A stretch of 64,000 nucleotides of DNA from Sinohyriopsis cumingii (lineage: Eukaryota > Mollusca > Bivalvia > Unionida > Unionidae): the NCBI GenBank assembly GCA_028554795.2, contig CM068829.1:136655579-136719578 (forward strand), in the 5' to 3' direction. This document shows positions 20,352 through 63,430 of the stretch, in pieces. The notes under the pieces were generated by a model. That model did no database searches, was not told the DNA's origin, and was given only the letters and a program-made list of their open reading frames with translations. The translations under genes and the position numbers were made by a program. Numbering within the stretch: position 1 is the stretch's first letter; each line of letters begins with the position of its first letter.

Positions 20352-20463
20352 GTCCTTGAAATCAAGGCACTCGCGCTGATATTGGGCGATATCTGGTATA
20401 TCTGAAGAAGGATCACTGGATGTGCTATCATTGGTGTGTACTGCAAATATAATTTAGATATCT

Positions 20464-22212: not shown

Positions 22213-22276
22213 AATTGTTCTAGCTGGAAGAATTAAAAGTTTGGCATGTTATAAGACGGTTCAAGTAAAACAGATG

Positions 22277-40440: not shown

Positions 40441-40622
40441 GTCGTGGGTTTGATTCCCGGCCGGCCAAGTCATACCAAAGACTTAAAAAAATGGTACTAA
40501 CAGCTGCATTAAGAGGTTAGTGTTAGGACTGGTCGGCCTGGTGTCAGTATAATGTGACTGGGTGGGACATCGTGCTACATGTTTGCGGCATAATGCCCCA
40601 GTGCTACATTAAAAAATCCAAA

Positions 40623-45711: not shown

Positions 45712-45839
45712 TTCATTTCGTTCAAAACCGTAAATATACTAAAAACTCGAATAGATATAACTAGATCAATATTATTTATTTCAATGAAGCCGTAGATATA
45801 CTATACATTCCTGTGGATCAAAATGCTCAGGATATTTGA
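44886..45839. other. no gene; (CT)n 45353-45388 and (TA)n 45648-45709
   Basis: A CT microsatellite and a long TA tract are the only structured sequences here. The left end of the Polinton should lie in or near this stretch, but no terminal inverted repeat was recognised. Confidence 0.45.
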
Positions 45840-48330
45840 CCTCTCAACCATGTCTGGACAAAGGACAACCACGAGTGCATTGCCCTGCTTGTCAGGGTAC
45901 TTTTATCAACCCTGACTGTTGCCAATAACATCCGAAGAAGCAAGGTTCACAGAGAAAAGTGCTTGTCAACTGTTGTGATTGTGCCCTGCTTGTGGACAAA
46001 GCATGCGTACAAATAGTGCAAAGGAACACGTATGTTCAGAAAAGAAACAATGTCACATTTACCGCCAAATCGAAACTTAGAACACGAATGTCAGATTCGA
46101 AAGTACCATTCCCAGCTAGAGGAGGAAGATGACCAGAAGAAAGGCAATTTCATCTTTTTCGATTCCAAATGCATGCAAGAGACCGGTTTTCACATTCATA
46201 ATTTCTGCGTGGCTCACTGAGCGTGCGAGAATTGCATCCAAGGGCCTATCTTTAATTATTGCCATCACTTCAGCTAGATTCCTGGAGAACGTGACACAAT
46301 CTTTCGCGGACCGAACACGCTATCCGATTTCGCCCGATGGATCTTAAACCCCATGGACGAGACGTGGAGCCAAGAGGGCATCTAACGTGACGGAGATTGT
46401 CATCACCATGCCAAGGTGATGGCTCAAAATTTCTCAGGATACGATGGACAGGTTATTCTCAGATACTATATGGAACAAAGTACCGAACATCCGAAAGTGA
46501 CTTTGAACGCAGCCAAAATCATTTCCATGCAAGTGGGTCAAGTACAGTTTAAAGATTCGATGAGCTACTTGGTCATGCCTTTGTGTCGAATGCCTAAACC
46601 GTTTGGAATGACAAAAATGACCAAAGGTTATTTTCCACACTTTTTCAATACAGAGGCCAATCAACATGTATTTCTACCCATTTGCATGAGGTTCACGACT
46701 ACAGTCCCAACAACATGCGTCTCGAACAACGAGAAGCTTTCTACGCTTGGTACCAGACTCATGCCTCAGACACTTTGCCTTTCAGGAATAAATGTATTAG
46801 TATTGTCGTTCCGACGTGGACATTTTACGGAAGTGCTGTGGAAAATTTAGAGAACTGTTCATGGAATACGGAGGGATGGATCATTTGAAAGAAGACTGCA
46901 CCATTGCCAAAGCGTATTCTTTAGGGTACCGCCAAAGATTCACACTCGAAAATACCCTGGCTGGCATCAACCCTCAAAGGACGAACTTTGTCAAACGTCA
47001 ATTCTCGGTCAAAGCCCTACGTTGGCTACATAAATTGTGCGACAAGGAAGACAAATGGATCCAATGTGGCCGCAACGGGGAGGCGAAAAGACTATCGAAA
47101 CATATTCGGTGGATGGTTGGGACTTAAAAAAACCTAAGATCGTCTACGAGTTTAACCGCTGCTTATTTCACGAATGTCCCCTCTGTTACTCTGAACGTGA
47201 CACTAAAAGTCAGTTTTTACAATTGACCATGGACGAATCGTACTAGGCCACTTGTCAGAGGTGATTGAAATTAGAACAGCAAGGATACCAAGTGATGGAA
47301 ATGTGGGAACACGAGTCCAATAACCGTTTGAAAACCGATCCCGAGTTCAAGTGCATCGTGGAAAGTTACAAGTTGGTGGACCCACTGAACCCGCGGTACA
47401 GTTTGTACGGGGGACGGATGAATGCCACCTATTTGCTGTACCAAGCCGACGAGGAGAAAGGATAGTAAATCCAATACCTGGACGTGTGTTCGCTGTATCC
47501 TTACGTGTGCAAATATTGTCACTTTCCCACAATTGTTGACCAAACACATCGACGTGTTTCCCCTGTGCCGTGCTTGTGCTGCAACGTGCAACCAAGACCG
47601 ATCCCGTCAGCATACCCAGGGGGAACGCGCCTTGACAGAAGCGTGGGTCACGGGGAATTGTTTCAAGCTCTGGTCATGTTATGCCAACTGTTAGAAGTGT
47701 ACGAAATTTACCACTTTCTCAAGGCAGAAAAATACCACAAGGGTGACCAGACACAGAAAGGCATTTTCGAAGACTAGGTGGATGCCTATTTGAAACTGAA
47801 ACAAGAAGTCAGCGGCTATCCTTCCTGGTTCCAAACTCCAGAAGACCAAATGAAATTCAAAGAAATTACTAGGAGCAAGAAGGCATCACTTTAGGCAACC
47901 TGGAGAAAAACGAAGGAAGGCTATTGTTTGCCAAAGCGATGTAAAATTATTTGTTGGGTAAAATGGCACAACGACCATGTTTACCCAATGCACGGTATTT
48001 TACAGAACCTTCCCGTTACTTCCACATGATTCACCGAGTGTAAGGTGAAATGAATAGCTCTCAATTATCGCAACAGTCAAGTGGTGAATATAAGCGTATT
48101 GAAAGAAGCTTTCGAGTCTGGACAGGATGGAAACTTTAAAGTGACCACCTACGAACCGCACATGTACGTTTACCCACACACCATATCGTCAGTCGTCCTT
48201 TGGGAAATGTGTATCAAATCGTGTACCAGAAGCGAGTGAGACTTCCCAATCCCTTCACTTTGCCGTACTGACACATGGATATTGGTCAGCATATAAAAAA
48301 GGACAACGTCCAAGACCGATAGTTCATTGT
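45840..48330 (+). pseudogene. Polinton protein-primed DNA polymerase B, heavily broken
   Basis: The N-terminal part has Cys/His-rich zinc-finger-like sequence (45855-46070) followed by 'EHECQIRKYHSQLEEEDDQK' and FIFFDSKCMQETG. That is the Exo I region; the family's D-F-E appears here as D-S-K. Further on come AQNFSGYDGQVILRYY (Exo II) and DSMSYLVMPLCRMPKPFGM, then KGYFPHFFNTEANQ, all typical Maverick polymerase. LKLEQQGYQVMEMWEHE lies at 47263-47313. 'NYLLGKMAQRP' (about 47946-47979) is the degenerate N-s-f-W-G-K-f-Q-R palm motif. The catalytic D-T-D-S region was not found. Many stops and frame changes rule out function. Confidence 0.88.
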
Positions 48331-48355
48331 AACTACCAAGACCAAGCGAGAAACA

Positions 48356-49000
48356 TGAATACTTTTAAACAGACATCATTTAAGTTTAGTGATTCACAAG
48401 TAGAGTGCAATGCTGTGCCTTGCGATGAGAGCGATGCCGTACACGGTGACCTCTGCATTTAAATAAAGTGTCATGGGAAATTTGGTATGACTACTACTAC
48501 TACTATCACTACACCTGCCATGGAAAGTGATGCTGTCCGCGTCTAACCTGACGGATGCGAAGGCGATGCTACTCGTTACAGAACACCTTTTCACTTTACT
48601 GGTTTTAATGGTGGATGACATTCTTCACGTAACACAATACATCTACCAACCTACAGATGTCATGTAACCCTAAGTAAACTCCTGCGGATTTCATTGTGCC
48701 CTCATCGAAATGACCCCGTGAAAGACGAATATTACAAGGATGCTTGGCAGGGACTTGCCAGAGCAAAATCTCAATTTTTGACTGTAGAAAGTTTGTGTCG
48801 AGAAATTCACAAAAGCAAAGTCAAAAAGTCAACACATTTGTCCGATTTCTCTGGATCAAGTCTGAGTTCATTCGGTTATTCCGCTTTAGACCGTTTACAC
48901 TAGAAAATTTTATTGACATTCTTGATGGATAATCTGAATAGCAGTGGTCAGAAATTACTCACTATTTCCATTATTTCGCTCTAGGATAAGAGTTTGAATA
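48356..49000 (+). pseudogene. Polinton-associated small ORF remnants
   Basis: Frames begin at an ATG at 48356 (MNTFKQTSFKFSDSQ) and again around 48694-48903 (DPVKDEYYKDAWQGLARAKS). Several stops intervene. These lie between polymerase and membrane/ATPase genes. I do not recognise the family; position is the only hint of origin. Confidence 0.4.
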
Positions 49001-49094
49001 AAATAAGGACAATTAGAAGTAACGTACAATCAGCTCTGTGCAGAAAGAACACTTTTTGTCTCCGACAAAAACAGGTATAAAAACGGGATACCGT

Positions 49095-49265
49095 GCCACG
49101 ACTTTTATCAGTGGTGATACAACAGATTCCGTGGAAGGAAATCGATGAGAATATTCAAACGGTGGAAGATTACCAACACGTATTACGAGAACTGTGTCCC
49201 ATGAATTATGGTCGACATGTGGTGTGTGTCTTATTGACTTGCTTATTGTGATTTTGTTTACTAGT
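49095..49265 (+). pseudogene. Polinton-associated single-pass membrane ORF, partial
   Basis: The frame reads IPWKEIDENIQTVEDYQHVL, then RELCPMNYGRHVVCVLLTCL and LWFCLLVDSL, then stops. The hydrophobic run near the C-terminus could be one membrane helix. Function unknown. Confidence 0.4.
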
Positions 49266-49337
49266 CGATTCCTTGTGAACCCTTTACGAACAGTACCTAC
49301 CACCGAATAAAACATGAAAGTGGTTCCCTTTAATGTC

Positions 49338-49795
49338 CACTAGAGACTCCTTTTGTTAAAAGCCTTGCGTTTTCATCTGAATATTTCTCGACCTCTACTG
49401 GAGAAAAAGATTCGTCAACTTTTAGGTACTGACGATGTGTGCGGCAATGTGTGTGTAGCTTGTGACTCACACCCTCATAGGACAGATATACGTGACTGGA
49501 AAAGTTGGGGTTTAGAGGCTTGGACCAAAGAAGTGGCCAATTATGCCCAAGAGTTGTGATCCTAAATTTAAACGTCCTGTGAAACAAGTAACTTTTATAC
49601 CTGTGTTAGTGACATTGCTAGAACAAGAACCAGACACCGAGGACAACCACTGCCTTCAGGACAGGACTCCAATAGACATTCCCGAAACACCATTCCGGGA
49701 GAACATCTGTGTGACTGTACCCAATGTAGAGGCTTTAAAAACATTATACACTGTTCATATGACACTATTGTTACCAAAATCATGTTGTAAATGAC
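49338..49795 (+). pseudogene. unidentified Polinton-region ORF remnants
   Basis: A frame at 49353-49559 (KALRFHLNISRPLLEKKIRQ, then a Cys-rich CGNVCVACDSH) is followed after a stop by other short frames up to 49795. The C-x4-C-x2-C pattern may be a zinc-binding motif. The adenain-like protease expected in Polintons could not be aligned here. Confidence 0.3.
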
Positions 49796-50094
49796 TTGTT
49801 TATATTCCAATCTGATCTTTTTGATGTACATTTTATCGCTGTACTTAACCATTTGGTTTTTATGTACTTTTGTCTTTTGTGTTGGTCCATTTAAAAAAAC
49901 AACAATAAACGTGTCCTGAAAAGTATAAAAGCTGTTGTTTTGTTTGTCTTCGTGGCAAAAGAGACATTCTCTGCACTATGGCTACGTTTGCTCCCTAACC
50001 TACCTCTTCCGCCACTTTCAAAGTCATTGACAAACACTGAGATCATGCCAGTTGGGAGGCCTTGTACGTTAGCCATCCATTTAACATGTAAATT

Positions 50095-50530
50095 CCGAAC
50101 CTAGCGGTTCAGGCAAAACCAAATTTGTCAAACGTTTGATCGAAAATAAACATCATTTGATCGATCGTCCACCTCAACCGATCGTGTGGTGTTACAAAGA
50201 GTGGCAATCGGCGTACACTCTCTTGCTAGAAAGTCAAGGCGATTTCAGGCGAAAAACATTTCTATGTTGCTGGTGATGCCAGCCAAAACCAATTCGGCAG
50301 CCGTTCTTCCTCATTGGATGAAACAATGGGAACACACGTCTCCGAAAATTTCTCTTCTAGCGGTGACACCCTCCTCATCTTTAGCTGCAGTAGCGGCTGC
50401 TCACAAAGTAACTACCTCCAACATCAAGGTCCAAGAGAGATCGGGTATGTTACAGAGTTTCCTGGATTTGTCAAAGCAAGAACTGTACCGATTTAGTCCG
50501 TAGCGAACCCCTACACAATGTGTAATGCCT
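50095..50530 (+). pseudogene. Polinton packaging-type ATPase (P-loop) remnant
   Basis: The frame at about 50095-50265 reads PSGSGKTKFVKRLIENKHHL then DRPPQPIVWCYKEWQSAY. This is a Walker A (GPSGSGKT, first Gly replaced) with the W-C-Y strand typical of Polinton A32/FtsK-like ATPases. Downstream the frame is broken, and no clear Walker B (LxxDDL) is left. The family is thought to pump DNA into capsids. Confidence 0.75.
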
Positions 50531-50603
50531 GTCATCAAGTTGATACGACTTAAAGACACTCAGTGGCGACGTATTTAAGTATAAAAAAGACCTGCTGTTA
50601 AGG

Positions 50604-51030
50604 ATGGGGATTAATGTATTTGAACGCCCAAAGATGTCCCCTAAAAGGTGTGCACACCACTCTCTGACTAAAAGAGGAAAGAAAAGAAAAGGGATTCCTC
50701 TTCGTTTGGCCACACAATGGGACATCTTGTTTCTCCTGTCCGGAGCTCCTCCACCCATGCGAAAACATCTCATTCAAACAGCCTCCAAAGACATCGTCTA
50801 TAACATGTGTGATTGTAGCCTGAATGTCTTGAAAGGCACTATACCTTTGTCTAAACATCAGATAGAATGATTAGCCTAGGATCAACACGTTCTTCGCCAA
50901 ATGGTCCAAAAGAAAATACCCATTCCTCAAAAGAAAATGGTGTTGCTACAACGCGGAGAAATTTCGCCATGTTGTTAGGACCCTTGATGAAAGGAGTATT
51001 GGTAATAATGCTGGGAGGACTCATGGTAGC
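50604..51030 (+). pseudogene. conserved small basic Polinton protein
   Basis: The frame 50604-50870 has CAHHSLTKRGKKRKGIPLRL, SGAPPPMRKHLIQTASKDIV and LNVLKGTIPLSKHQIE, then a stop. The same frame resumes with HVLRQMVQKKIPIPQKK and a Gly/Leu hydrophobic end ('LLGPLMKGVLVIMLGGLM'), with a frameshift inside. A short Lys-rich protein of this type is recurrent in animal Polintons and in host copies derived from them. Function is unknown to me. Confidence 0.6.
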
Positions 51031-51145
51031 AAGATAAACAGGACCAAGAAGATAAAAGGGACCTATGGAGTTAAAGGATCTCAGATGTGACTATTAAAAT
51101 CCAATGTAAGGACGAAAACTGACTTTAGAGCCTTACAAACGATAG

Positions 51146-51589
51146 ATGGAATTCCATCATTGGCAAGAACAATGGACCCCACATTTGCCACCCAATCCTC
51201 ATTTGACCAAGATGTACCGGTTACAACACGAAATTAAATCGTTGATGAATCTGAACGACTTGAGCGAACCAGAGCAATCACAATGGTACAGTCAACTGTT
51301 GAAACGACTGCAACTCGTTCACCAGAAAGCTGTAGACAAAACAGCTCAGCCGACTCTGAAAGATATTCAGACCCTGATGAAAAGTCCAACACTACCACTA
51401 CGCTTTGTGACTAAGACAGAAAAAGGAGAAGAAGAAGAGATTGAAACTGTACCAGAAAAAGTACGCAAGTTAACAACACCACCTACATCCATATTTAGAT
51501 GGATTAAAAAGAGGAGAAGAGAAAAGGAAAGAGATCCTCCTCCTCCTCGACACATATCGCTGGACGGACACGTAAAGCATTACAAGTAA
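51146..51589 (+). CDS. conserved Polinton small protein, intact 147-codon frame
   Basis: This is the only sizeable uninterrupted frame in the Polinton. It starts MEFHHWQEQWTPHLPPNPHL, then has a helical Gln/Leu-rich region (LSEPEQSQWYSQLLKRLQL), a Thr/Pro linker, an acidic EKGEEEEIE tract and a basic KKRRREKERD tail. The 'lsd.e....Y...l.r' pattern recurs in small Polinton structural proteins. It sits between the basic small ORF and the integrase. Its integrity could be chance given its modest length. Confidence 0.5.
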   Translation: MEFHHWQEQWTPHLPPNPHLTKMYRLQHEIKSLMNLNDLSEPEQSQWYSQLLKRLQLVHQKAVDKTAQPTLKDIQTLMKSPTLPLRFVTKTEKGEEEEIETVPEKVRKLTTPPTSIFRWIKKRRREKERDPPPPRHISLDGHVKHYK

Positions 51590-51659
51590 AGAAAATACCA
51601 CACGAAAAAAAAAGAGTAGCTTCAGTGAACATTGGGTGACCTATTAACAAAAATGTAGA

Positions 51660-52500
51660 AAGTGTTAGCCAGCATTTACTACAATCCAGGTCATCATACA
51701 GCTTACGGAGAAATTGTATCGTACTGTCAAAACCCGATGAAAAGTTTCCGTTTTCCTCAAGTGCAACATTGGTTACAAGAACAAGCCTCGTACACTTTAC
51801 ACAAACCCATTTGACGAAAAGTTTCCAGAACTTGCACCTGAGTGAAGAGCATCGATCATCAGTGGCAAGCCGATTGAGCTGTTGTCGCTCATTTGGCCAC
51901 CTACAATCTTAGCTACAAATATTTGTTTTGTGTCATCTATGTCATTTCCAAATATTCCTGGGTCAAACCATTGACTTCCAAATCGAGCAGTGAGTTAGTG
52001 CGAGCCCTCACACTGGTGTTGAAATAGCAAACCGACAAAGGCAACGAATTTTTAAACCAAGCGTTCCAAAACAACTTATAGAAACGTGATATTCATTTCT
52101 TCACCAATGAGAATCCCGAAACCAAAGCCAGCATCGTTGAACATTTTCAACGCACCTTGAAAGAACGGGTGTGGAAATATTTTAAGCATCAAGACACTCT
52201 CAGGTACATCAACGTCTTAACGCACTTAGTAGAAGCTAACAACCAATCTTAGACGTGCACCCAAGACGTGACTCCAGACAACGAAGTGACCGTCTTTAAG
52301 CGTCTGTTTGGTACGTTCCCAATGGTGGCTGTACCAAAGAAAAGTGGAGTGTTGGCCACAGGAGAGTATGTGCGCATTGTTAAAAGCAAACGCACTTTCG
52401 ACAAAGGTTAATTACCCATCTAGACCACTGAATTGTTTCTTGTCATTGGCAAGTGCGTGGCCGTCATCCCGCCGTCCGCGTCGCAAGTCATCAACTATAA
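51660..52500 (+). pseudogene. Polinton retroviral-type integrase with preserved D,D,E but many stops
   Basis: One frame runs the whole length, interrupted by about eight stop codons. DHQWQADxAVVAHLA (Asp codon at 51872), then the second Asp in QTDKGNEFLN (52034), then ETKASIVEHFQRTLKERVW (Glu codon at 52139), give D-x53-D-x34-E. YKYLFCVIYVISKYSWVKPL lies between the first two. A C-terminal SH3-like segment (VLATGEYVRIVKSKRTFDKG) follows. Decay is by substitution and the frame itself is intact, unlike the polymerase. This enzyme inserts Polinton ends and makes 6-bp duplications. Confidence 0.9.
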
Positions 52501-52515
52501 ACATAAGTAACCATC

Positions 52516-52790
52516 ATGTCCTTCAACTCGGCCTTAACCGCAATGACCACTCCTTCACCGAGTTCTTCTCTGCAAGATCTACAAAAGCAACCCTTATGTG
52601 TGTGGTGTGGAGAACGTATGCCTAAAATGTGAAACGCCTTTTTTAGTCATATCCTTGTGGGGTATTGTGTCATCGGTGCAGCCATTGTCCATTAGAGTTT
52701 GCAACTAGGAGACAAACAATTGTGGACCATTTTACTAGGCGGTTGCATCGGGTACCTTCTTCCCAATCTTTTCCAGAAATAATCCTCGAA
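52516..52790 (+). pseudogene. Polinton-associated membrane ORF with CxxC
   Basis: The frame starts MSFNSALTAMTTPSPSSS and has LCVWCGERMPKM (C-x2-C). After a stop comes a hydrophobic hairpin-like region (SHILVGYCVIGAAIVH, then a second stop, then WTILLGGCIGYLLPNLF). Two membrane helices are plausible. Position between integrase and penton supports Polinton origin. Confidence 0.45.
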
Positions 52791-52916
52791 CGGGAACAAC
52801 GACAGCCGTGCGTCCAACGTCAGTCACAACTCCAACAACAACAATCACTACATCAATCCTCTATTAGACACTCCTTTGGCTTCCAGTAACTCCTCGGACA
52901 GCAGAACACTGGAATT

Positions 52917-53800
52917 ATGAACAACAACAACATCCAATTTTACTTAACGCTACCCAGTGACAGTTCCATTGAGGTGTTTCCCAACAACACTTTGTATTGC
53001 TATTCGGCCAAATTACATCAGGCCCTCCAATTAGATCACGACATTCAATGGCAAGTGGCTTTGGTTGAAATAATTTACCCTACACAATTAAAAGACATTC
53101 CTGAGAAGCAAAACACTTTCTAGGTCGGAAACCTGAACGTCCAATTGCAAGAAGAACTGAATAAAATAGGGTTTTCAGGTGACACAAAGTTAGCAATCAA
53201 TTCATCATTCAGCATATACATGTTGTAAATTCCGTCAGGTTATTATTTGAGTGGTGAACATTTGATGGACAAAATTACTGACAGGTTCGAGGCAGCGTTT
53301 GGAAAACCCCTGAACAGAGCCAAATAAATGTTAAGATTGAGTACCATAAAGTGGCCCTTCGCATACTGATGAAATTGAAGGATACCGACATGTTGTCCAT
53401 CAGGTTTAATGATGTTTGAAATTTCGGGTGGACATCAGCAGATGGTAACACAGAATCGGAACCCGAAGATCCATAATATGGAATTTTACAGGGAGTTTGG
53501 GTCCCCTGTAGAACTGAACAAAGGACTCAGTTTAATCTTTGTGTACTCCGATGTGGTGGAGTTACCGTTACTGTATGTCACTTCTTTCAAGGTGGATTCT
53601 ACCACGGCCAGTTACAGGGAAGGTAGAAATACGACATTCACCACGAATTTGTACATCACAATTTACCCGTCAGTAAGTCGTATTTCGATACTGTCAACAT
53701 TACGACACAAGGAGATCCGTTCTCCAAAGAAAAGTCGCGGTCAAACGAGCTGTAAGACATTTATCCCGTGTATAGAGGAGTCGCTCGACAGCGATGACCT
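52917..53800 (+). pseudogene. Polinton penton-like minor capsid protein, broken
   Basis: The first frame (52917-53123) has FYLTLPSDSSIEVFPNNTLY then QWQVALVEIIYP, the strong N-terminal signature of Polinton penton-type single-jelly-roll proteins. After stops, 53490-53560 reads NKGLSLIFVYSDVVELPLLY, and another frame at 53660-53730 reads SKSYFDTVNITTQGDPFS, matching the C-terminal part of the same protein. At least two frameshifts and several stops are present. Confidence 0.8.
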
Positions 53801-54018
53801 GGTTTAGGAGATATGTTTATATCGGCCTTTCGTTCGGCAGCTTGGCCTTGAAACCGATGGTGACACGGGGATTGCACGATTTGAAAGATGCCGCATTGAC
53901 GAACGGCAAACAATTTCTCCAAAGTGTCATCATCGACAAACAATCCAGACAGAACTGCTTCAGCACTCACTATCCCGAAATTGAAAAACGAAATAGGAAG
54001 CAGAATCCCGGATAACCG
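53755..54018 (+). pseudogene. adenovirus pX/pVI-like core protein of Polinton, truncated
   Basis: A frame reads DIYPVYRGVARQR, a stop, then PGLGDMFISAFRSAAWP. The neighbouring frame continues LKPMVTRGLHDLKDAALTNG and KQFLQSVI. The order YRG..RQRG.GLGd.F...R...P resembles the small basic core/minor-capsid proteins next to the penton in Polintons. The Polinton sequence ends abruptly at about 54018, where LINE sequence begins. Confidence 0.6.
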
Positions 54019-54720
54019 TTGAATATACACAGCAGAATTCTGGGCCATATTTGAAGCAGTAAAGACAACATATCAACAGACATTTCATAAAATAGTAATA
54101 ATAAGCAACTCACTTAATGTGCTAAAAACACTGGAAACATGCAACTCAAAGTGGGGTGAAAACCTCCTACAAGAAATCTGCTTGCTACTCAACAACATGG
54201 AAAAACAAGACCAAATTGTAGAATTCATGTGGGTTCCGTCGCATATAAACATCCCAGGTAACGAAAAGGCCGACCAAGCAGCAAAGAACGCACTAAGCGA
54301 ACTTGAACCATACCATATCGTTACAGCGTCCCAGAATTATAAAGCATGATAACCAGACAAATTGCCTCTAAATGGCAAACCCAGTTGGATAGATGCCCCA
54401 AAGGACATACGCTGTACTCGATTAATAAAACAGTGAGTCGCAATACCAAAGCACCGAAAACCACTATTAAATATCATCAACGGATCATGAACCGAATCAA
54501 TACGGGAAATACATACCTTGCAAGCAGCATGGGGAAATATGTCCTGGCTAATTGTGGATTTGGAGCAAAATGCCCCAACTACGTCGATGATGAAGATCTC
54601 CGGCATGTTTTCAAAAATATGCCCGAAATATGACGAACAATGGAAATAATTACCCACTTCGTTAAAGAAAATGTGCTCGTCATATACCTACCCGGAACGT
54701 CTTTACCAAACTAATCCCAA
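54019..54720 (+). pseudogene. LINE RNase H domain and C-terminal fragment
   Basis: The frame from about 54021 reads IYTAEFWAIFEAVKTTYQQT, then IISNSLNVLKTLE and EFMWVPSHINIPGNEKADQA. That is the RNase H domain of non-LTR elements (TAE...SDS...WVPSH.gi.GNE.AD). The central SDS is changed to SNS, losing a catalytic Asp. The next frame (54346-54633) has KHTLYSINKT-like and 'CPNYVDDEDLRHVFKNM' motifs of the C-terminal region, where H-x-F/L usually precedes the last Cys. It is 5'-truncated and fused to the Polinton. Confidence 0.8.
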
Positions 54721-54894
54721 CCCCAGTCAAACAAATGATGCCATATTAATCTTCCTTAAGGAAATTGTCAAAATCAACAAAATCAATAAAATATATTCCA
54801 ACCCAATTCATTATACTCAGACCGGTTTGACATCACACATCCTATATATAATTAAAATTAGTCACTTATCCAATCAATATCATTCAATTTCATG

Positions 54895-55660
54895 CGTTGA
54901 AACAGGTTGGAAAGTGGTTCCGGAGGCAGTATACGGTTTACAGCCCGAGTTGGGGAGAGTACCACCAGTGCGCGGGTCGATGCTGCACAGAACCCATCAC
55001 ACACTACGGTACCCTGGGTGATTAAATAAGCAATGCAGTTTAGATTTAGAAGTAGGACTTAATCAATACTCATCCATAAAACATCTAATTATTACATTAT
55101 CGGACATCCTTCTTAGGGCGGCTGCGTATGAAATTAGGGTCGGGGGTAGCATACGGTTTACAGCCCGAGATGGGGCCAGTACCGACAGTGCGCTGGATTA
55201 TGCTGCACCTGCCTCTATTGCCCACTTCGGCGCCATGAGTCGTCCAAATATATAATCCATTAAGCAATGCAATAGGTGATCGGTAATTAAGTAACTATCA
55301 TACTCATACTAACATCAGTCTGCTCTATCAGTACATGAATCATCCTATAATGCATTAAGACTGGCTAATAAAAATAGGTATTATAAGGTGGATTAAATCC
55401 CACCCATCGGGGCCCGTTGCACAATGCGGCAACAAATTGATTCATAAACTGATTAGAAATTAAAGTAACAACCCAAAATTAGACCTATAAAGTGGCTAAA
55501 GATCCAAAGCCTTAAAGACAAGGTACACAGTGTGGCACCAAATTACATAATTAGGAAATATGTCCTTAAAACATTAGAATTATAAGTTGACTAAATCTCA
55601 GTCATCAGGCACCCTTCACACGGCGGAAATACTAATTATTATAATAGAAACTAGAAACAT
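54895..55660. repeat. divergent tandem repeats upstream of the histone-stem-loop units
   Basis: TACGGTTTACAGCCCGAG with its ~100-bp context recurs at about 54930 and 55152 (spacing about 222 bp). Shared downstream blocks are AGTGCGC.GG, ATGCTGCAC and TTAA..AAGCAATGCA. Then three ~100-bp repeats follow (about 55383, 55491, 55588), each a '(T/A)TAA(A)GT(G)GNCTAAA' start and an ACA.(T/G)GCGGCA-like end. They share no recognisable TE domain and lead straight into unit A. Confidence 0.6.
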
Positions 55661-55806
55661 TATTCGATTAAATACCTTCTCCCTTAAATAGACTTGGAGA
55701 TTCATCATGCCATCTATATCTTTATCTTATTCTATAAACAGCACAAATGATTTTTCAAGTTATAAATACGGCAAACGACGTCATTTACTATACGGAAACT
55801 GGGGCA

Positions 55807-55813
55807 TATAAAA
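55807..55813 (+). promoter_or_regulatory. TATA box of unit A
   Basis: TATAAAA, in GGGGCATATAAAATCGATCC. Unit D has TATAAATA at the same relative place, about 230-290 bp before the leader hairpins. Confidence 0.5.
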
Positions 55814-56001
55814 TCGATCCCGGATGTACGGCGCATTCCTTCCATTGAATCGGACCCACCTTTGCCACCTCCAGACATGTATCATATAAGTGAGTGCGTG
55901 TGGACCATTCCCACTCGCAACAAGTCACGTGAGACATCAATGTCTCGAAATCGGACTAATCAAATAGCACTTCCATTTTTCCCCCCTCGAAAAAAATCAG
56001 T

Positions 56002-56046
56002 TATTCCCAAACGGGAATATAACTAGTCGTAGATGCCCGTAAGGGC
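56002..56046 (+). promoter_or_regulatory. leader hairpins of unit A
   Basis: Hairpin 1 is TATTCCC-AAAC-GGGAATA (perfect 7-bp stem). Hairpin 2 is GCCC-GTAA-GGGC (56035-56046), with a GNRA-type loop. Unit D has the same loops with a different hairpin-1 stem, and unit C has both positions with wholly different stems. Confidence 0.6.
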
Positions 56047-56160
56047 TAACTTGACTTTAATTGAAACGACCGAACGACCGTCCATTCGCGTCAATCATCA
56101 TTAGTCACGTAGAATCAAGCGAACAGTGCACGTCGTGGTGGAACTGAACACTGCAACACA

Positions 56161-57019
56161 ATGCGTGGCGCCAAGATGACTGCCCGCTATTGCAGTTATT
56201 CCTGCACCAGCCCTAAGGGCCATTAAACCTCTTGGGAAGAAAAATCTACCAACTGGAGTTTGAGAGCTGGAGCAAAAAGAACCACTCTACTTTTAACCTG
56301 GGATAACAACACTGAGCGAGAGGACTTGTATATCAGGAATTGGGAGACTATGGTTTAGTTTGAAATAATATTAGAAGGAGACGTAGGGAGAGGAGGAAAG
56401 CTGCTCAAGTGAGAACGGCAAACCACTCGGATACACCCCCTAGTAATTCAAGCAGTAAACCGAGAAACCTAGAGTAGATACAGACCCCCAAATGTTGCTT
56501 AGAAGAACAACAATATCCACCCAGACCAATACTCAGCAGGAAGGAGGAACTGATATAGCCTCAAAGGATGCTACTACTGAAACCGAGATACCGCCAGAAA
56601 CTGAAGATCAGAACTCAGAAGAAGGAGCTGTAGCGGAAGAAGAAAACTCTGATGAGGACAATGGAGAGGAGGTTACGCTTGAACAACGATATGAAGAGTT
56701 ATGAATACAGGAAACCCGAAGTGATCATAAAAAGGCAAGAAACATTGTTAGTTATGTAATGTACGTGGCGTGGAAGTCACTTAGAACAAAGATGAAACCT
56801 ACCCCACGGCAATGGTTGTTTGCACAGTGTATCCTTTCAAAATACTACTCAAAAACATACCAAGAGTACCCGCTACCTATCCTTGTGGACTATGCAGCCG
56901 AGTTGTCACACATATCCGGGTATGAGGCATTTCCCGACGACACATATGAGGAACAACACATGGCGGCAGAAACTTGGTACCACGAGAACCGCCAAAAAAC
57001 CTTCCGACTTCTGACATAA
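56161..57019 (+). pseudogene. unit A family protein, broken
   Basis: An early frame has RTTLLLTWDNNTERED, alignable with TTLLLIWKETAE of unit C. A middle frame (56492-56704) is Thr/Glu-rich and very acidic (NSEEGAVAEEENSDEDNGEE). A C-terminal frame (56759-57019) has YVAWKSLRTKMKPTPRQWLF, then YQEYPLPILVDYAAELSHIS, then YEEQHMAAETWYH, and ends with TAA two bases before the stem-loop. Frame shifts and stops separate the pieces unless introns are involved. The C-terminal domain matches unit C around Y.x.P(L/I)PIL....EL...G. Family unrecognised. Confidence 0.45.
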
Positions 57020-57020
57020 A

Positions 57021-57084
57021 AATCCTTCTTAGGGCTGCAAAAAAATGCCTCCTTCCGAGGGATTCCATTTTGGCTTGGAATCCC
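57021..57084 (+). terminator. histone-type 3' stem-loop (degenerate) and second hairpin, unit A
   Basis: The first stem-loop is AATCCT-TCTT-AGGGCT, with one A-C mismatch. Twenty-two bases later comes GGGATTCCA-TTTTGGCT-TGGAATCCC, a perfect 9-bp stem. Positions match unit C, whose first loop is TCTC and whose second stem is entirely re-paired. Confidence 0.6.
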
Positions 57085-57171
57085 AATTCGAGTAAGTCAT
57101 TACACTGACTTGATCACTTAGACCACCACTTCAAAATTGTAATCATGTTACCTTATAGTGACCAAGCTTTT

Positions 57172-57188
57172 TATGTCGCTTAGACATA
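57172..57188 (+). promoter_or_regulatory. third downstream hairpin, unit A
   Basis: TATGTC-GCTTA-GACATA, a perfect 6-bp stem. Unit C has GGTC-TTTTA-GACC at the equivalent place (60224-60236). Confidence 0.5.
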
Positions 57189-57359
57189 TCAGTAATTAAA
57201 ATTAAAATTAAAATTGTAGAGCATTCCAAATGTATACTATGTACTAGTATTAATTGATTAATTAGGACGTACAAAATCTTTTTAAGACTGTTTGATTTGA
57301 TCGAATTGCACAGGTGGCTTACACATAATTGGCATTTTTATTGTCCATTAGTACAACTG

Positions 57360-57770
57360 GACTGAAATTGCTTAAATACGGGCTGACATTTTGGGGAGTA
57401 CACGACATCGATGGCCGGCTTGCCCAGTTACTTTCTTCCTTGCCTCGGTCGGACATCGCACACTCACGGAGATGTGGAACCATTTCAACCCGTCAAATAA
57501 CCTGGTGTCCGGGTGTGACGTTGTATGTGTTGGGTCCATTCCCACTCATGACGGCCCTTCAAATCAGATCGTTAAGGACTTATTAATCATACGACTTGAC
57601 GGCCTAATAAAACAGTGTCCTATGAACACATAAATGTCTTGGGGATAAGGGACTAATTCCTTCCCCCAGGAGTAATTAAATTGCCAGCCGTGCTTGCATA
57701 AATCGTCGATAGATTCGCACCAACCTGGAAATAAAAACAAATTATTAATAAGGCAACTAGGAACATAAAT
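57360..57770 (+). promoter_or_regulatory. orphan leader B, cut by a microsatellite
   Basis: It contains GTGTTGGGTCCATTCCCACT, then AATTCCTTCCCCCAGGAG and an ATAAATCG block that align with unit C's leader at 58393-58580. A stem-like TGCCAGC-CGT-GCTTGCA (one mismatch) stands where unit C has TCCTGC-TGT-GCAGGA. No coding sequence follows; the CA/TA microsatellite begins at 57780. Confidence 0.5.
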
Positions 57771-57779
57771 GGGGGAGAA

Positions 57780-58032
<253 letters not shown>

Positions 58033-58551
58033 TCATCTACCTGCTACTAACACTCTCAAACCTACCATGTTTCCTCTCTAATTACTAAAAGCATTAAATA
58101 ACACAGAACCTCTGTCAATTCAGCAAATATTCAGAACAGTTCAGAAATATGCTCAATTATTCTAAATTGAAAATTCATGTAAGACGACAACTTTAGATCA
58201 ACACTCTGGACTAATCAACGGACACCTTCCTGTGGATTGGCGCCTGCCCTCCCGCCCACCTCCTCTCATGCCAAGGCCGGACATCAATTAACATCGTGCA
58301 ATGCGCACCTTAATTTTTACCAAAAGAAATCATGAGTGGGTGTCGGTTCCAATCCCACTCATCCTCACAATTGGTACTAGCTTACTTAAACATGAGTGCG
58401 TGTTGGGTTCATTCCCAGCCATGACACCCCACCATTTAGATAGCATAAAACAATATGTCTCGCTATCGGACAGCTTATTTATCAGCACTCCTTGAGTGTA
58501 TAAACGCCTGGGGTGTGTGGCTCCAATTCCTTTTCCCAGGAACAATTAGCA

Positions 58552-58594
58552 TCCTGCTGTGCAGGAATAAATCAGACGCACATGCACTCCGTGC
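58552..58594 (+). promoter_or_regulatory. leader hairpins of unit C
   Basis: Hairpin 1 is TCCTGC-TGT-GCAGGA. Hairpin 2 is GCAC-TCC-GTGC, preceded by ACAT and followed by GAA exactly as GCCC-GTAA-GGGC is in unit D. Confidence 0.55.
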
Positions 58595-58699
58595 GAACGC
58601 CTCTATAACCCAAGTAATCAATCAATCAATTCTCCTCAACATTTTCTGTCGTCGACTAACGAAGCAGTAAGCAACACATGACGCATTAAGGGAGTCAGC

Positions 58700-60059
58700 G
58701 ATGGAAGCCATATTCCCACAACAATCGTTGAGTGCGATAAGGGGGTTAAACCTTTAAATCGCCACAGGATGGAGCTTGCGTGTTCAAGCAAACCGTACCA
58801 CGCTATTGCTAATATGGAAAGAAACAGCAGAAACAATTGGAGAGGTGCCAACATAAGAAATTGGAGAAATGTGCACCGAAGAAGGCCGACATCAAGAAGA
58901 GAAAATGAGGCACCACAGCTGGAGCAAAATTGACTACAGCAGAATACATACATCCAGCTGCAAGTGACACCCAATGTCGGCACCATAACGACTTCTATCC
59001 ACGGAATGATGTTCACAACTGCTAAAGCACCTCGAACTATCCAACTGGAAACACGAACAGTTGAAACCTTTACCAGAAATGAAAACGAGGCTCAAGAGAG
59101 GGTCATGGAGGTAAACGCAAGTCATAGACTAAGTGGAACGGAGTCAATGGCAATTCAGGACACCCTAAGGGATGATTAAAAGGATACGATTCCTATAATT
59201 ATCCCAGTACCTCTGCATGAAATCAAGAATCTAAAGGAATTAAGAAGATCCGTAGCAGCATCATTACCAATCATAGCCCAGAAAATGGACATGGGTTTAA
59301 CAACCCTAGTGGTAGCTACACTGACATCTCCTACTGCAATACCCCCCAAATTACCTAGCGGGAAAATTGCTGGAAGTAAACCTACTAGGTAATTCACAAC
59401 AACAACAATAACAAAAACTAAAACCAGTGAGCCTTTCATGAAACAACCTACCACACTCTCAAGAGAAGCAACTACATCAGACCCAACAATTACTGGTGCC
59501 TAACAAAAAACCGAAACAACGCCAGATAAAAGCAAAAAACAAATTTCAGCTGCGAACAAAGATACCAAAGAAACCAAAGACACAAACAAGAAGTGCCCCA
59601 ACCAAGACTAACCCAGCCACAACTCATACAGACGTGAATAACTATATGGCCGACTAATTTGACGAATGGGGCCTTTCCTACCTTCTACAAAATAACAACG
59701 CAGCTACATATTTCAATGACGCACTCCGGACAATACTAGAGGCCCACCAAAAAATCTACTACGATGGAACACCAGAAAGAAATGCCTGAAAAATATTGAA
59801 GATGCTAAGGAAGAAATCGTAGACATTAGCACCCGGGGAGAATATTTTTTATGACTGCCCAATACCAATCTTGGCGATGCTGATAAACGAGCTTCTGAAC
59901 CAAGGAGTGAAGTCCAAGACAATCAAAAGACACCATCAATGGAAACTCCGGGTCTTAGGCGACCTGTACGGTATTGATGGATACGCAGGACGAAGAAGGG
60001 AAAGCTTCAGCCCTCCAAATATCATCCAGCCGTTCCTGTATCCATTCTCCGAGGAGTAA
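58700..60059 (+). pseudogene. unit C family protein, broken
   Basis: An early frame has TTLLLIWKETAETIGEVPT, a stop, then EIGEMCTEEGRH. From 58964 one frame continues for about 660 bp with only a few TAA stops: a polar start, IPIIIPVPLHEIKNLKELRR, then a Thr/Lys-rich low-complexity linker. After shifts, 59640-60059 reads FDEWGLSYLLQNNNAATYFN, DALRTILEAHQKIYYDGTPE, 'FYDCPIPILAMLINELLNQG' and LRVLGDLYGIDGYAGRR, ending in TAA at 60057. The C-terminal domain pairs with unit A. Likely a decayed gene of some 400 residues; function unknown. Confidence 0.45.
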
Positions 60060-60063
60060 CCTC

Positions 60064-60129
60064 AGCCCTTCTCAGGGCTAACACAAATTGCCATTTTATT
60101 CAAGAGATTTCAATTTGGCTTGAAATCTC
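60064..60129 (+). terminator. histone-type 3' stem-loop and covarying second hairpin, unit C
   Basis: The first is AGCCCT-TCTC-AGGGCT, a perfect 6-bp stem with a 4-base loop and A/C-rich flanks (CCTC before, AACACA after). CAAGAGATT at 60101 resembles the purine-rich histone downstream element. The second hairpin is GAGATTTCA-ATTTGGCT-TGAAATCTC (9 bp). Compared with unit A the stem changes at paired positions while TTTGGCT in the loop is constant. Confidence 0.65.
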
Positions 60130-60521
60130 GACTTGATAGTACTATGATAATCTAATATGATCCGTTGACCACCGTTTTAAATTAAAACCACAATACCTAA
60201 CTTAACATTCGAAAATTTCATATGGTCTTTTAGACCTAAATTTCTTTCAATTTCAAGTATTAATGCACACTACGTGCTTTTAGAAATAATTAAGATAGGA
60301 AAATTTAAAAAACTTAAAACCGAGACTCTAAGTACGAGTGTTGCTAACATAGAATTGGTAATAGGGAATACCCATTATATAAGTAACTGGGTTGAATTTG
60401 GTAATATCAGTTTTGGCGTTTCAGATACGTTCCGGCCGCGTTTGGACTTCTCCTCCGAGTCCCTTCCCTCCCTGCTTGCTTTGACATTTAAAGACGAGTA
60501 TGTGGGCAGACTCCAACTCGT

Positions 60522-60529
60522 CTATAAAT
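60522..60529 (+). promoter_or_regulatory. TATA box of unit D
   Basis: TATAAATA in CGTCTATAAATAAGGTGCCC. Confidence 0.5.
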
Positions 60530-60806
60530 AAGGTGCCCCTAGGAACGTGTACGCACGGAGCTGGGGTGACGTTATAAGACCAGTGCCCAATCATGTGAGA
60601 CGTCTTACCATGCAGTTATACCGACACACAGACAATTATTTACCTTGAGTGCGTGTTGAGTCCAATTCAACTAGAGATACCCTTTCATATGGGTCGAAAG
60701 GAACTTATTGTCCCACGACTTATTCGCTACTCAATAAGCTCTCGATGAGTGCACTAATCCGTTGCCGGAAGTGGCACCATTCCTTCCCCCTCGAAACAAT
60801 CGATCA

Positions 60807-60858
60807 GCCCCAAACGGGGCACAAACTGGTCGTACATGCCCGTAAGGGCGAATACGAC
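60807..60858 (+). promoter_or_regulatory. leader hairpins of unit D
   Basis: Hairpin 1 is GCCCC-AAAC-GGGGC (60807-60820). Hairpin 2 is GCCC-GTAA-GGGC (60838-60849), itself enclosed by GTCGTA (60829) and TACGAC (60853), giving a 6-bp outer stem, a 3x3 internal loop (CAT/GAA) and a 4-bp inner stem with a GNRA loop. Confidence 0.65.
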
Positions 60859-60913
60859 TTAAATCAAAGTGACCGACCGATTCGAGTCATTCTACACGGA
60901 ATAATCAAAGAAG

Positions 60914-61126
60914 ATGGCTTCAAATCAGATTGACGTCATAACGATATTACAAGAGGCTATATACGATCTTGGGATGGTGAAAGAATTCATCATGAAATTG
61001 AGGTATGGTGTCTATACCATTCACAGAGCCAAGATGGAGACAGACAATGCAAAGAAGACGAAGGAAAGATTAAAAGAGCTGCTGAAAAAGTCAAGTAGGA
61101 CAAGGAGGACGAAGAAGACAGAATAA
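60914..61126 (+). CDS. unit D basic protein, 70 codons
   Basis: The frame begins MASNQIDVITILQEAIYDLG, directly after AAGAAG (good context). It continues helical (MVKEFIMKLRYGVYTIHRAK) into a Lys/Arg/Glu coiled-coil-like tail. The stop at 61124 is followed in the same frame by 70 more Lys/Glu-rich codons that run into the stem-loop, so the stop may be a later mutation. The high basic charge is consistent with nucleic-acid binding, but it is not a core histone: no histone-fold motif is seen. Family unrecognised. Confidence 0.45.
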   Translation: MASNQIDVITILQEAIYDLGMVKEFIMKLRYGVYTIHRAKMETDNAKKTKERLKELLKKSSRTRRTKKTE

Positions 61127-61293
61127 GTGACGAGAGCGTGGAACAAGAAAATAGAAAAATATGAGGGGAACGAAAAAAGGAAAAAAGAGGAGGAGGAGAA
61201 AGAGGAGAATAAAAATAAGAAGAATGTAGAAGCGAAAATAAGAAGTTGGCAGACAAAAGAAAAGATCAGAAGACAAACAAGAAGGAAACCAAA

Positions 61294-61332
61294 GGCCCTT
61301 TTCAGGGTCACTCATATCCCTCGTAAAGATTT
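61294..61332 (+). terminator. near-canonical histone-mRNA 3' stem-loop with downstream element
   Basis: GGCCCT-TTTC-AGGGTC (61294-61309) has a 6-bp stem (one G-U), loop UUUC, CCAAA immediately before and AC immediately after. This matches the metazoan replication-dependent histone consensus, apart from the G-U pair and ACTCA in place of ACCCA. GTAAAGAT (61324), 14 bases after the stem, resembles the U7-binding downstream element. Such signals normally direct cleavage without polyadenylation. Confidence 0.7.
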
Positions 61333-61345
61333 GCTTGCTTGCCTA

Positions 61346-62699: not shown

Positions 62700-62812
62700 A
62701 AAATAATTAAGGGATTAGTGTTAGGATTGGTCGGCCTGGTATCAGGATAGCGTGACTGGGTGGGACATCATGCTACGTGTCTGTGGCATGATGCCCCAGT
62801 GCTAGACGTCAC
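62700..62812 (+). mobile_element. SINE family 1, 5'-truncated copy
   Basis: It starts at GGGATTAGTGTTAGGATTGG and continues CGGCCTGGTATCAGGATAGC, GACTGGGTGGGACATCATGC, GCATGATGCCCCAGTGC. No tRNA-like head remains. Confidence 0.85.
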
Positions 62813-62843
62813 TATAAACTGCTACACTGCAAAATTGTTAAAG

Positions 62844-63430
62844 CTACGTTAAAAGTCGAAAATACACACACATACAAATGTGTGTTGAATTTATTGAGTT
62901 CGGCCGTCGAGACGACGATGACCACTTTAGACATCCAGTGTTTGAGTGATGTTTTATGGGTCTGTGGGTGCGCAGGTGGCTGAATATACGGATGTGTACC
63001 CTGAATAATCTATGGCAGTGTGTACAGGGGAGCCACTGGCTCAGGTTTTCCTGGCCTGACTCCGTTTTTTTCTGCACAAGCTGTCGTGTTGACCTCGCAA
63101 GCTTCAGCGCCATTTCCGATGGAGGAACACCACATGCCACTGTTCTGAGTAGCCTACTCGCACGTGTCAGTGCCAATGCCAAAATCCTTCAATGACGTCT
63201 TCAATGTGTCCTTGTAACGTTTCCTCTGCCATCCTTTGGAGCTTTTTCCTTGTTCTAGCTTGCAAAAAAAGAGTATTTTTGAAAGCAGGTGGTCTGGCAT
63301 GTGAGCTACATAGCCTGCGCATCGTAACTTCGATTGCATCAGGATGGTGTAGAGCAAATTCATTAGTATCCGAGATAGTTGTGTATTATTCAATGATATA
63401 CCGATTTTCGTTTCCTTATTCAGTATCATA
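62844..63430 (-). pseudogene. LINE C-terminal remnant with C2H2 finger
   Basis: The first frame (63429-63154) reads KLRCAGYVAHMPDHLLSKIL, then EQGKSSKGWQRKRYKDTLKT and SLKDFGIGTDT. This is the 'RWAGHVaRMpd.RlpK..l.geL..GkR..GgqrKRyKD.lK.sLk' block common at the 3' end of animal LINE ORF2. The next frame (63182-62844) contains CTHCHRLFRVHIRIFSHLRTH, cut here as C-x2-C-x12-H-x4-H, the terminal C2H2 finger of these elements. A frameshift joins the two. Confidence 0.88.

What the first reader, a model, noticed from the sequence alone, without database searches (positions are those of the whole stretch)
55780..61345. Tandem family of units sharing TATA promoter, structured leader and histone-like 3' end
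Units A, C, D and orphan leader B repeat the same order of parts head to tail over 5.5 kb: GAGTGCGTGTtGG(G)TCCATTCC block, CCTTCCCCC block, two leader hairpins, an unrecognised protein, and a 3' stem-loop within 2-5 bases of the stop in A and C. Coding parts are diverged while RNA-level signals are kept. It could be a previously undescribed multi-gene mobile or viral element, or a fast-evolving host gene family regulated like histones.
Basis: partly seen in the sequence, partly recalled or inferred. Interest (0 to 1): 0.88.

Follow-up and report, generated by a model that had tools for sequence, protein, structure and literature searches.

The report
Promoter-splitting element in viral gene array
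A two-kilobase mobile element of an unknown protein family lands at the predicted start sites of virus-derived genes, duplicates the start site and brings its own TATA box, which would keep both itself and the gene it hits switched on, and many of those genes carry a histone-type RNA ending signal.

Summary
In the window's genome (2.9 Gb, unnamed) the units are dispersed repeats. A and C are copies of a mobile element with fixed ends (56103-57712, 58648-60879). The 'leader' (two hairpins, TATA) is the element's 3' end; 'orphan leader B' is A's own 3' end. D is a different gene; in a better-kept locus its type lies in a row of small genes behind the protease gene of a Maverick/Polinton-like element. 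Near-identical young copies carry an intact 307-codon gene. In 11 of 12 copies read, an exact 11-16 bp repeat flanks the element; in the 10 where it could be measured it starts 18-30 nt behind a TATA-like box of the target, and 16-21 nt behind the element's own 3' TATA. Uninterrupted targets exist. So each insertion likely takes over the old promoter and gives the target a new one. D-type genes end in a near-canonical histone stem-loop, mostly with a U7-type element. The protein has no relative found. RNA copying, transcription starts and histone-type processing are inferred, not measured.

The parts
45812..53954 (+). Decayed Maverick/Polinton-like gene block (DNA polymerase B, ATPase, core, integrase, minor capsid remains); left limit 45812 recurs as limit of similarity in two other loci
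   Evidence: DNA_pol_B_2 hit 4.9e-05, 22.8 bits under cut-off 25.8, on 46386-46847; pieces beside the units in 6 of 7 other loci; open homologues in L018 and L022 with rve, chromodomain, Pox_A32 and DNA_pol_B_2
53990..54890 (+). 3' part of a LINE-type element with RNase H domain; ends in a TATATATAA stretch and CATTCAATTTCAT; possible but untested partner element
   Evidence: RNase_H 2.6e-10, RVT_3 1.3e-05; sequence
55107..55119 (+). Possible stem-loop of an upstream unit; same 13 letters as in A
   Evidence: chance not excluded (0.61 expected in window)
55885..56102 (+). 3' end of an upstream element ('leader A'): GAGTG block, hairpins H1 and H2, TTTAAT, (GACCG)-like tail, then the TSD-like ATTCGCGTCAATC (56084-56096) and a short 5' tag
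56103..57712 (+). Mobile element copy A (broken); fixed 5' end AGTCACGTAGAATC
   Evidence: Similarity begins at 56102-56104 in 6 of the 7 best other matches (L024-L029); the seventh, L030, is alike on both sides of it. For window plus L024-L029, 300 nt to the right are alike in 21 of 21 pairs, to the left in 2 of 21
56161..57019 (+). Broken ORF of A (stops, frameshifts); N-terminal WSLRAGAKRTTLLLTW-type stretch, basic and acidic middle, predicted helical C-terminal domain (56705-57016)
   Evidence: three pieces 45-73% identical to the intact 307-residue protein
57022..57037 (+). Decayed histone-like stem-loop of A, right behind the stop
57059..57084 (+). Second 3' hairpin of A, loop ATTTTGGCTT, compensatory to C
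   Evidence: 2 of 8 pairs changed on both sides, 0 of 2000 shuffles
57500..57712 (+). 3' end of element A ('orphan leader B'): GTATG block, CCTTCCCCC, hairpin remains, CATAAATC; then TSD-like ATTCGCACCAACC (57713-57725)
58388..58647 (+). 3' end of a further element ('leader C'), with TATAA (58604-58608) and (ATCA)n tail; body lost
58648..60879 (+). Mobile element copy C (broken)
   Evidence: Present as one piece 58648-60880 at 84% in L013; similarity ends at 60880 also in L019 and L021. In three other places (L002, L003, L006) similarity runs on into D, as in the window
58701..60059 (+). Broken ORF of C, homologous to A at the N terminus
   Evidence: z 7.5, 0 of 150 shuffles; 51% over 37 residues to the intact protein
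60064..60079 (+). Histone-like stem-loop of C, AGCCCTTCTCAGGGCT, 4 nt behind the stop
   Evidence: Rfam Histone3 17.6 bits, not significant alone (E 2.1)
60104..60129 (+). Second 3' hairpin of C
60640..60879 (+). 3' end of element C ('leader D'): GAGTG block, H1, H2, TTAAAT (60859-60864), GACCGACCG tail
60880..61345 (+). D: start region ATTCGAGTCATTCTACACGG and body of a Maverick accessory gene (ATG 60915), ORF broken; uninterrupted start region of the same gene type in L005
61289..61333 (+). Histone-type 3' end of D: CCAAAGGCCCTTTTCAGGGTCACTCA plus purine-rich downstream element GTAAAGATTTG
   Evidence: Rfam Histone3 29.4 bits (cut-off 34), E 8.2e-05 in 21 kb and 2.5e-05 in 6.5 kb; no hit at gathering score

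Best explanation
The array is a stack of insertions of a mobile element of about 2 kb with one gene (copies A and C in the window), each sitting at the predicted transcription start of a virus-derived, likely D-type gene inside a decayed Maverick/Polinton-like element. Shown by sequence in young copies: the element has fixed ends, a short variable 5' tag, a single ORF, two predicted hairpins, a TATA box and a short (ATTC)n-type tail at its 3' end; insertion duplicates 11-16 bp of the target right behind a TATA-like box; uninterrupted targets exist. Inferred: the old TATA box and first copy of the start site then drive the element, while the element's 3' TATA box and the second copy of the start site drive the displaced gene, so neither loses its promoter and a later element can land on the same site (as in the C11 tandem). 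Copying most likely goes through RNA by reverse transcription primed at the target with a borrowed enzyme, the 3' hairpins serving as the handle. D-type genes are predicted to make poly(A)-less messages cut behind a histone stem-loop with U7, which would tie them to S phase or germ cells.
For: Dispersed copies: 42 confirmed matches for D (40 of 1992 first-look candidates scored), 48 for A (40 of 672 scored), 150 for the A protein domain (150 of 2516 scored). Intact: 22 of those 150 rows show an open frame of exactly 314 codons without stops; L051/L052 are 98.9% identical from the 5' boundary on, units of 2073 and 2066 bp. Exact flanking repeats of 11 bp or more in 11 of 12 copies; TATA spacings. 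Uninterrupted sites for the MCSK and MPAAS genes. Two copies in tandem at one site on C11. Fixed 5' end of the window's own subfamily. 3' end order H1-H2-TATA-tail in window copies and young ones. Maverick genes beside the units in 6 of 7 loci; in L018/L017 the order is MCP, protease, MCSK, MNTR, MPAAS, D-type, all on one strand. 19 distinct histone-type stem-loops in 51 held loci (264 kb), 0 in one shuffle.
Against: No reverse transcriptase in the unit and no partner found (the RNase H search did not complete). Only 1 of 6 older copies of A's subfamily has a left flank that is clearly a promoter or element end. C1:95 has no located 5' end (7-letter match only); in C9 the element's box reads TGTAAT. 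Two of the 12 copies share flanks (one event). My TATA-like pattern for targets was loose (TATAA, TTTAAGA, ATAAGAA or CATAAA). In the window itself the duplication is decayed (A: 10 of 13 letters alike; C: none recognised). L013/L014 has no type-1 Maverick match but a second virus type. The young copies have AATAAA between stop and stem-loop and loop UUUA, and a subgroup of A-type copies lacks the stem-loop (L034, L040, L043-L045, L049, L050). No transcript data at all.
Confidence: 0.76

Rival explanations
1. Gene cassettes of Maverick-like viruses are exchanged by DNA recombination at similar promoters; there is no transposition of single units.
For: Junctions lie at similar promoter motifs; several targets share the start motif CAGTCTAACCATC; modules recur in different orders; some copies share neighbours on both sides, such as L030 with the window.
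Against: Exact target duplications of 11-16 bp, uninterrupted sites, variable ATTC tail length and 5' tags; recombination would not duplicate the start site.
Confidence: 0.12
2. A DNA-based mobile element (circle, or an enzyme such as the Maverick integrase) inserts at start sites.
For: Promoter plus ORF in circular form would be a working gene; rve integrase is near.
Against: No inverted termini seen at the read ends; tail of variable repeats; duplication length varies 11-16 bp; Polinton integrase duplications are recalled as 5-6 bp.
Confidence: 0.15
3. A host gene family expressed like histones and multiplied in tandem.
For: Histone-type 3' ends, TATA boxes, tandem order.
Against: Many dispersed copies with fixed ends; neighbours are integrase, protease, polymerase and capsid-type genes.
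Confidence: 0.04
4. The histone-like stem-loop is only a DNA or RNA motif of other use, not a processing signal.
For: A/C-type versions have UYUU or UUUA loops and a second hairpin instead of the purine element, young A copies have AATAAA before it, and the full-length element RNA would have to run past it.
Against: The 10 accessory-type sites all have loop UUUC, and 8 of the 10, by eye, have an AAAAGA/GAAAGA-type stretch at about the distance known for histone genes.
Confidence: 0.2

Closest known systems
HeT-A / TART / TAHRE telomere retrotransposons of Drosophila (PMC5537684, passages seen)
   Same: Head-to-tail arrays in one direction; sense promoter in the 3' UTR that reads the next copy (HeT-A, TAHRE); HeT-A codes only for a Gag (recalled)
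   Different: Here the sites lie inside chromosomes at predicted gene starts with target duplications, the tail is (ATTC)n instead of poly(A), the 3' promoter would serve unrelated target genes too, and the protein has no known relative
Site-specific non-LTR retrotransposons (R1, R2 and others; recalled)
   Same: Fixed target, target duplication, 3' RNA structures
   Different: No reverse transcriptase in the unit; the target is the predicted Pol II start of several unlike genes, not rDNA
Ty3 of yeast (recalled)
   Same: Inserts at transcription start sites
   Different: Ty3 is an LTR element at Pol III genes; this has no LTR, sits at TATA-box genes and would rebuild the promoter
Maverick/Polinton elements and adintoviruses (PMC11071296, passages seen; otherwise recalled)
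   Same: PolB, rve integrase with chromodomain, packaging-type ATPase, protease-like and capsid-type genes; small accessory proteins
   Different: Accessory genes here end in histone-type 3' signals and are hit by the start-site element; neither turned up in the literature searches made
Replication-dependent histone genes
   Same: Stem-loop with CAAA and ACC-type flanks and purine-rich downstream element
   Different: Encoded proteins have no histone match in Pfam

Membership tests
Maverick/Polinton | protein-primed family B DNA polymerase | tested here: met
   DNA_pol_B_2 85.5 bits in L022; 22.8 bits, under cut-off 25.8, in the decayed window copy
Maverick/Polinton | retroviral-type integrase | tested here: met
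   rve 53.7 bits and chromodomain 32 bits in L018; window copy decayed, DNA similarity only
Maverick/Polinton | A32/FtsK-type ATPase | tested here: met
   Pox_A32 29.3 bits, cut-off 22.8, in L022
Maverick/Polinton | adenain-like protease and double jelly-roll capsid | tested here: inconclusive
   Peptidase_C5 16.1 bits under cut-off 21.3; MCP and minor capsid of L018 named from recalled sequence features, no Pfam hit
Maverick/Polinton | terminal inverted repeats and 5-6 bp duplication | not tested
   element ends were not sought
Non-LTR retrotransposon | own reverse transcriptase | tested here: not met
   one long ORF (307 codons) in the 2073-bp unit; the other ORFs of 80 codons or more in the held 1979 bp are antisense; Pfam best is Augurin 18.1 bits under cut-off 27
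Non-LTR retrotransposon | target duplications of variable length, repeat tail, no terminal repeats | tested here: met
HeT-A-like | promoter in the 3' end and head-to-tail arrays | tested here: met
   sequence only: TATA 16-21 nt before the duplicated start; C11 tandem
HeT-A-like | location at chromosome ends | tested here: not met
   e.g. C1:105.2 Mb of 193 Mb, C10:95.9 of 124 Mb
HeT-A-like | Gag homology | tested here: inconclusive
   no Pfam family above cut-off and no protein match; sensitivity limited
LTR retrotransposon | long terminal repeats | tested here: not met
   5' and 3' ends of young copies differ
Replication-dependent histone gene | histone stem-loop | tested here: met
   D: 29.4 bits, under gathering score 34, E 8.2e-05; 10 accessory-type sites with loop UUUC in held loci
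Replication-dependent histone gene | histone fold protein | tested here: not met
   no histone family for window D pieces, MPAAS, MCSK or MNTR
Cyclin fold (lead from model of A C-terminus) | fold match | tested here: inconclusive

The most novel reading that the evidence does not exclude
A categorically new insertion strategy: a gag-only retroelement that recognises RNA polymerase II start sites of viral genes with histone-type messages, splits the promoter between TATA box and start, copies the start site and supplies a fresh TATA box, so that each insertion turns one gene into two working genes and builds growing, co-expressed arrays; the element thereby rides on and reshapes the accessory gene set of Maverick-like viruses, which in turn borrow the histone message pathway for S-phase expression.
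Probability: 0.5. Interest if true: 0.95.

Novelty: new variant of a known kind. Interest (0 to 1): 0.88.

Why it matters
Mobile elements that hit promoters normally break genes. Here the sequence shows insertions that would rebuild the promoter they enter, at many places and recently, since young copies are nearly identical and open. That makes start-site choice by a Pol II-targeting element directly testable. Separately, poly(A)-less histone-type messages are thought of as a privilege of histone genes; an array of virus-derived genes with stem-loop and U7-type element would be a new user of that pathway.

Tried and rejected
Cyclin-like fold for the C-terminal domain of A: suggested by Foldseek rows, not upheld by VIA-align or Pfam. 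Leader as 5' UTR with a pyrimidine-rich start (my own earlier reading): dropped when the fixed ends placed the hairpins upstream of the TATA box. tRNA-type B box in the GAGTG block: an impression by eye, not tested. Host gene array: see rivals. Rfam weak hits on the AT microsatellite: low complexity. Weak Pfam rows under cut-off were not taken up: DUF4820, SpoVR, NRDE-2, POLO_box and Auto_anti-p27, NRBF2_MIT, Augurin. Relatives of A, C and of the intact 307-residue protein among about 5.8 billion proteins: none. IMG/VR: no relative of the A or C pieces, no exact leader or stem-loop pattern. Phage records with D: none. PDB sequences with A and C pieces: nothing credible. Literature: the nine searches listed no paper whose title or abstract start is on histone-type ends in Maverick genes or on a start-site element of this kind; of two papers passages were seen, of the rest listings only. 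Never answered: the DNA search with unit C and the protein search with C, neither repeated; the RNase H partner search; the junction search; the 3' end searches; the D protein search; the genome-wide stem-loop count.
Full report
The four 'leader' blocks are homologous well beyond chance, except that A-B alone is weak; two hairpins in A, C and D show compensatory changes; A and C share about 240 bp behind the stop; and histone-like stem-loops stand right behind the stops of A and C. D ends in the best histone match: Rfam Histone3 29.4 bits, below the curators' 34 (so not listed) but E 8.2e-05 over all families, covering stem-loop and the purine-rich downstream part. All three ORFs are broken. 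A and C share an N-terminal stretch (z 7.5, 0 of 150 shuffles) with dN 0.45 and dS 1.55 over 22 codons, so the protein was under selection.

Where it lies. The window belongs to a 2.9-Gb genome of unnamed origin. In 6 of 7 neighbourhoods fetched around D or leader copies (7 of 42 matches, my choice), pieces of the window's 45.8-54 kb block lie within about 20 kb of the units (in one of the six only 254 bp; in L021/L022 the units come before the polymerase; the seventh has none). Open relatives name that block: rve integrase with chromodomain, Pox_A32-type ATPase, viral DNA polymerase B, and an adenovirus-protease match under its cut-off. In L018/L017 the order on one strand is core, integrase, minor capsid, major capsid, protease, then four small genes: MCSK, MNTR, MPAAS (named here after their first residues) and a D-type gene (the core and capsid names are recalled). 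The window copy lacks recognised capsid and protease genes between its minor capsid remains and the array, and carries a LINE fragment there.

Two kinds of unit. D-type genes and the other small accessory genes are resident genes. In 51 held loci (264 kb, overlaps not removed, loci fetched because they match the units) 19 distinct stem-loops of the form RGCCCTTYTYAGGGYY occur, none in one shuffle of the same loci; 10 of 19 lie 1-39 nt behind an ORF of 60 codons or more, 4 lie 43-82 nt behind one, 5 have none. Ten belong to accessory-type genes: all have loop TTTC, and by eye 8 of 10 carry an AAAAGA/GAAAGA-type stretch some 12-17 nt on, which is what U7 snRNA pairs with in histone pre-mRNA (recalled); L003 and L007 look decayed there. 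Nine belong to A-type units, 8 with loop TYTT and one with TCTC. A- and C-type units differ in kind: they have fixed ends. Of the seven best other copies of A, six start at window 56102-56104; L030 is alike on both sides and shares the window's upstream piece. For the six plus the window, 300 nt to the right all 21 pairs are alike (z 98 or more), 300 nt to the left 19 of 21 pairs are not. C's similarity runs from 58648 to 60880 and stops in L013, and stops at 60880 in L019 and L021; in L002, L003 and L006 it runs on into D, as in the window; in L004, L005, L007 and L008 only D matches, from 60880 on. So each unit runs from about 30-60 nt before its ATG to the end of the next 'leader': the leader is its 3' end.

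Young copies. The A protein domain has 150 matches (150 of 2516 first-look candidates scored); 22 rows show an open frame of exactly 314 codons without stops (307 from the ATG in L051 and L052). These two copies are 98.9% identical from the 5' boundary on, measure 2073 and 2066 bp, and have different flanks on both sides. I read the junctions of 12 copies. In 11 of 12 an exact direct repeat of 11 bp or more flanks the unit (for C11b the computed 29 letters include the neighbour's tail, and I read the repeat proper as the 16 letters CAGTCTAGCTACCCAT; C1:95 gave 7 because its 5' end was not located). Two rows, C1:105235 and C1:105345, share their flanks and are one event. The repeats are CAGTCTAACCATC, CAGTCTAGCCATC, CGTTCAAACCAT, CGTTCGCACCAT, CATTGGAGCCCA, CAGTCTGGCTAC and the like; mismatched left-right pairs share 8.1 letters on average against 13.3 for true pairs (several targets share the motif). 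They start 18-30 nt behind a TATA-like box of the target in 10 rows; C1:95 and C11b gave 8, the latter because of the 29-letter match. The element's own box (TATAAT in 11 of 12, TGTAAT in C9) lies 16-21 nt before the repeat in 10 rows, 25 in C1:95. Right of the repeat follows the target's short 5' UTR and ATG: MCSK in three copies, MPAAS in two (one event), MASNHLDK, of the window-D type, in two; in the other five the target gene was not identified. Uninterrupted versions of the MCSK and MPAAS promoters stand in L018, and that of a window-D-type gene in L005, the same place on C11. On C11 at 26.27 Mb two young copies follow each other with the repeat present three times.

Reading the window with this key. 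D's start region is ATTCGAGTCATTC, in the uninterrupted relative CATTCGCGCCATTC. Left of A stands ATTCGCGTCAATC, right of A's end ATTCGCACCAACC (10 of 13 alike): likely a decayed duplication of a D-type start. C's 3' end abuts D's start directly; no duplication around C was recognised. So an upstream element, A, a lost one and C were likely laid down at starts of D-type genes, and the 'tandem family with shared promoter and leader' is the row of their 3' ends. In each there is a TATA-like box (TTTAAT, CATAAA, TATAAC, TTAAAT), behind H1 and H2 where these survive, and then a short tail; the young copies fold into the same order with unlike letters.

Mechanism. Shown: fixed ends, duplications, position behind TATA-like boxes, own TATA at the 3' end, intact young genes. 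Inferred: transcription of the element from the old promoter and of the target from the new one; RNA copying (variable tail, variable duplication, short 5' tags resembling the 3' tail, no terminal repeats); borrowed reverse transcriptase; histone-type processing of D-type messages. A conflict remains: if the element's own message were cut at its stem-loop, the 3' half could not be copied. Its loop is mostly UYUU, or UUUA in the young copies, which also have AATAAA just behind the stop; it lacks the purine element, and one subgroup lacks the stem-loop. So read-through is plausible but untested.

Comparison. HeT-A works most alike: sense promoter in the 3' UTR, head-to-tail rows (PMC5537684, passages). 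This is not a member: places are inside chromosomes, tail and targets differ, no protein relation was found. Novelty claims rest on the searches named under Tried and rejected.

Noticed in passing
L013:1976-3118 (-) and L020:667-4008 (+): A second virus type beside the units: 381-residue protein with Pfam DJR-like_dom (71.5 bits) in L013; similar genes and a protease-like ORF (no Pfam hit) in L020. They lie left of the units in L013 and right of them in L019/L020.
   Followed up: partly
window 54900-55885: Stretch with a doubled 68-bp block (54921, 55141; 82% alike) that also precedes A-type bodies in L030 and L048; perhaps a further element.
   Followed up: partly
L048:1828-2035: A piece of the same LINE (79.8% over 208 bp) sits inside an A-type ORF.
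   Followed up: no
window 10443-10516 (-), repeats at 10291-10454, 40461-40606, 62706-62870: tRNA-Pro-like sequence next to a dispersed repeat of about 165 bp: looks like a tRNA-derived SINE.
   Followed up: no
window 19974-22248 (-): LTR-type retroelement remains: reverse transcriptase (RVT_1 116.9 bits) and an integrase zinc-binding match just under its cut-off.
   Followed up: no
L034, L040, L043-L045, L049, L050: A-type subgroup with another sequence behind the stop (ATTGCCTCTTAGGGGAGAAATCCC-like) instead of the stem-loop.
   Followed up: partly
window 12928-13661: 73-bp tandem repeat, copies about 98% alike.
   Followed up: no
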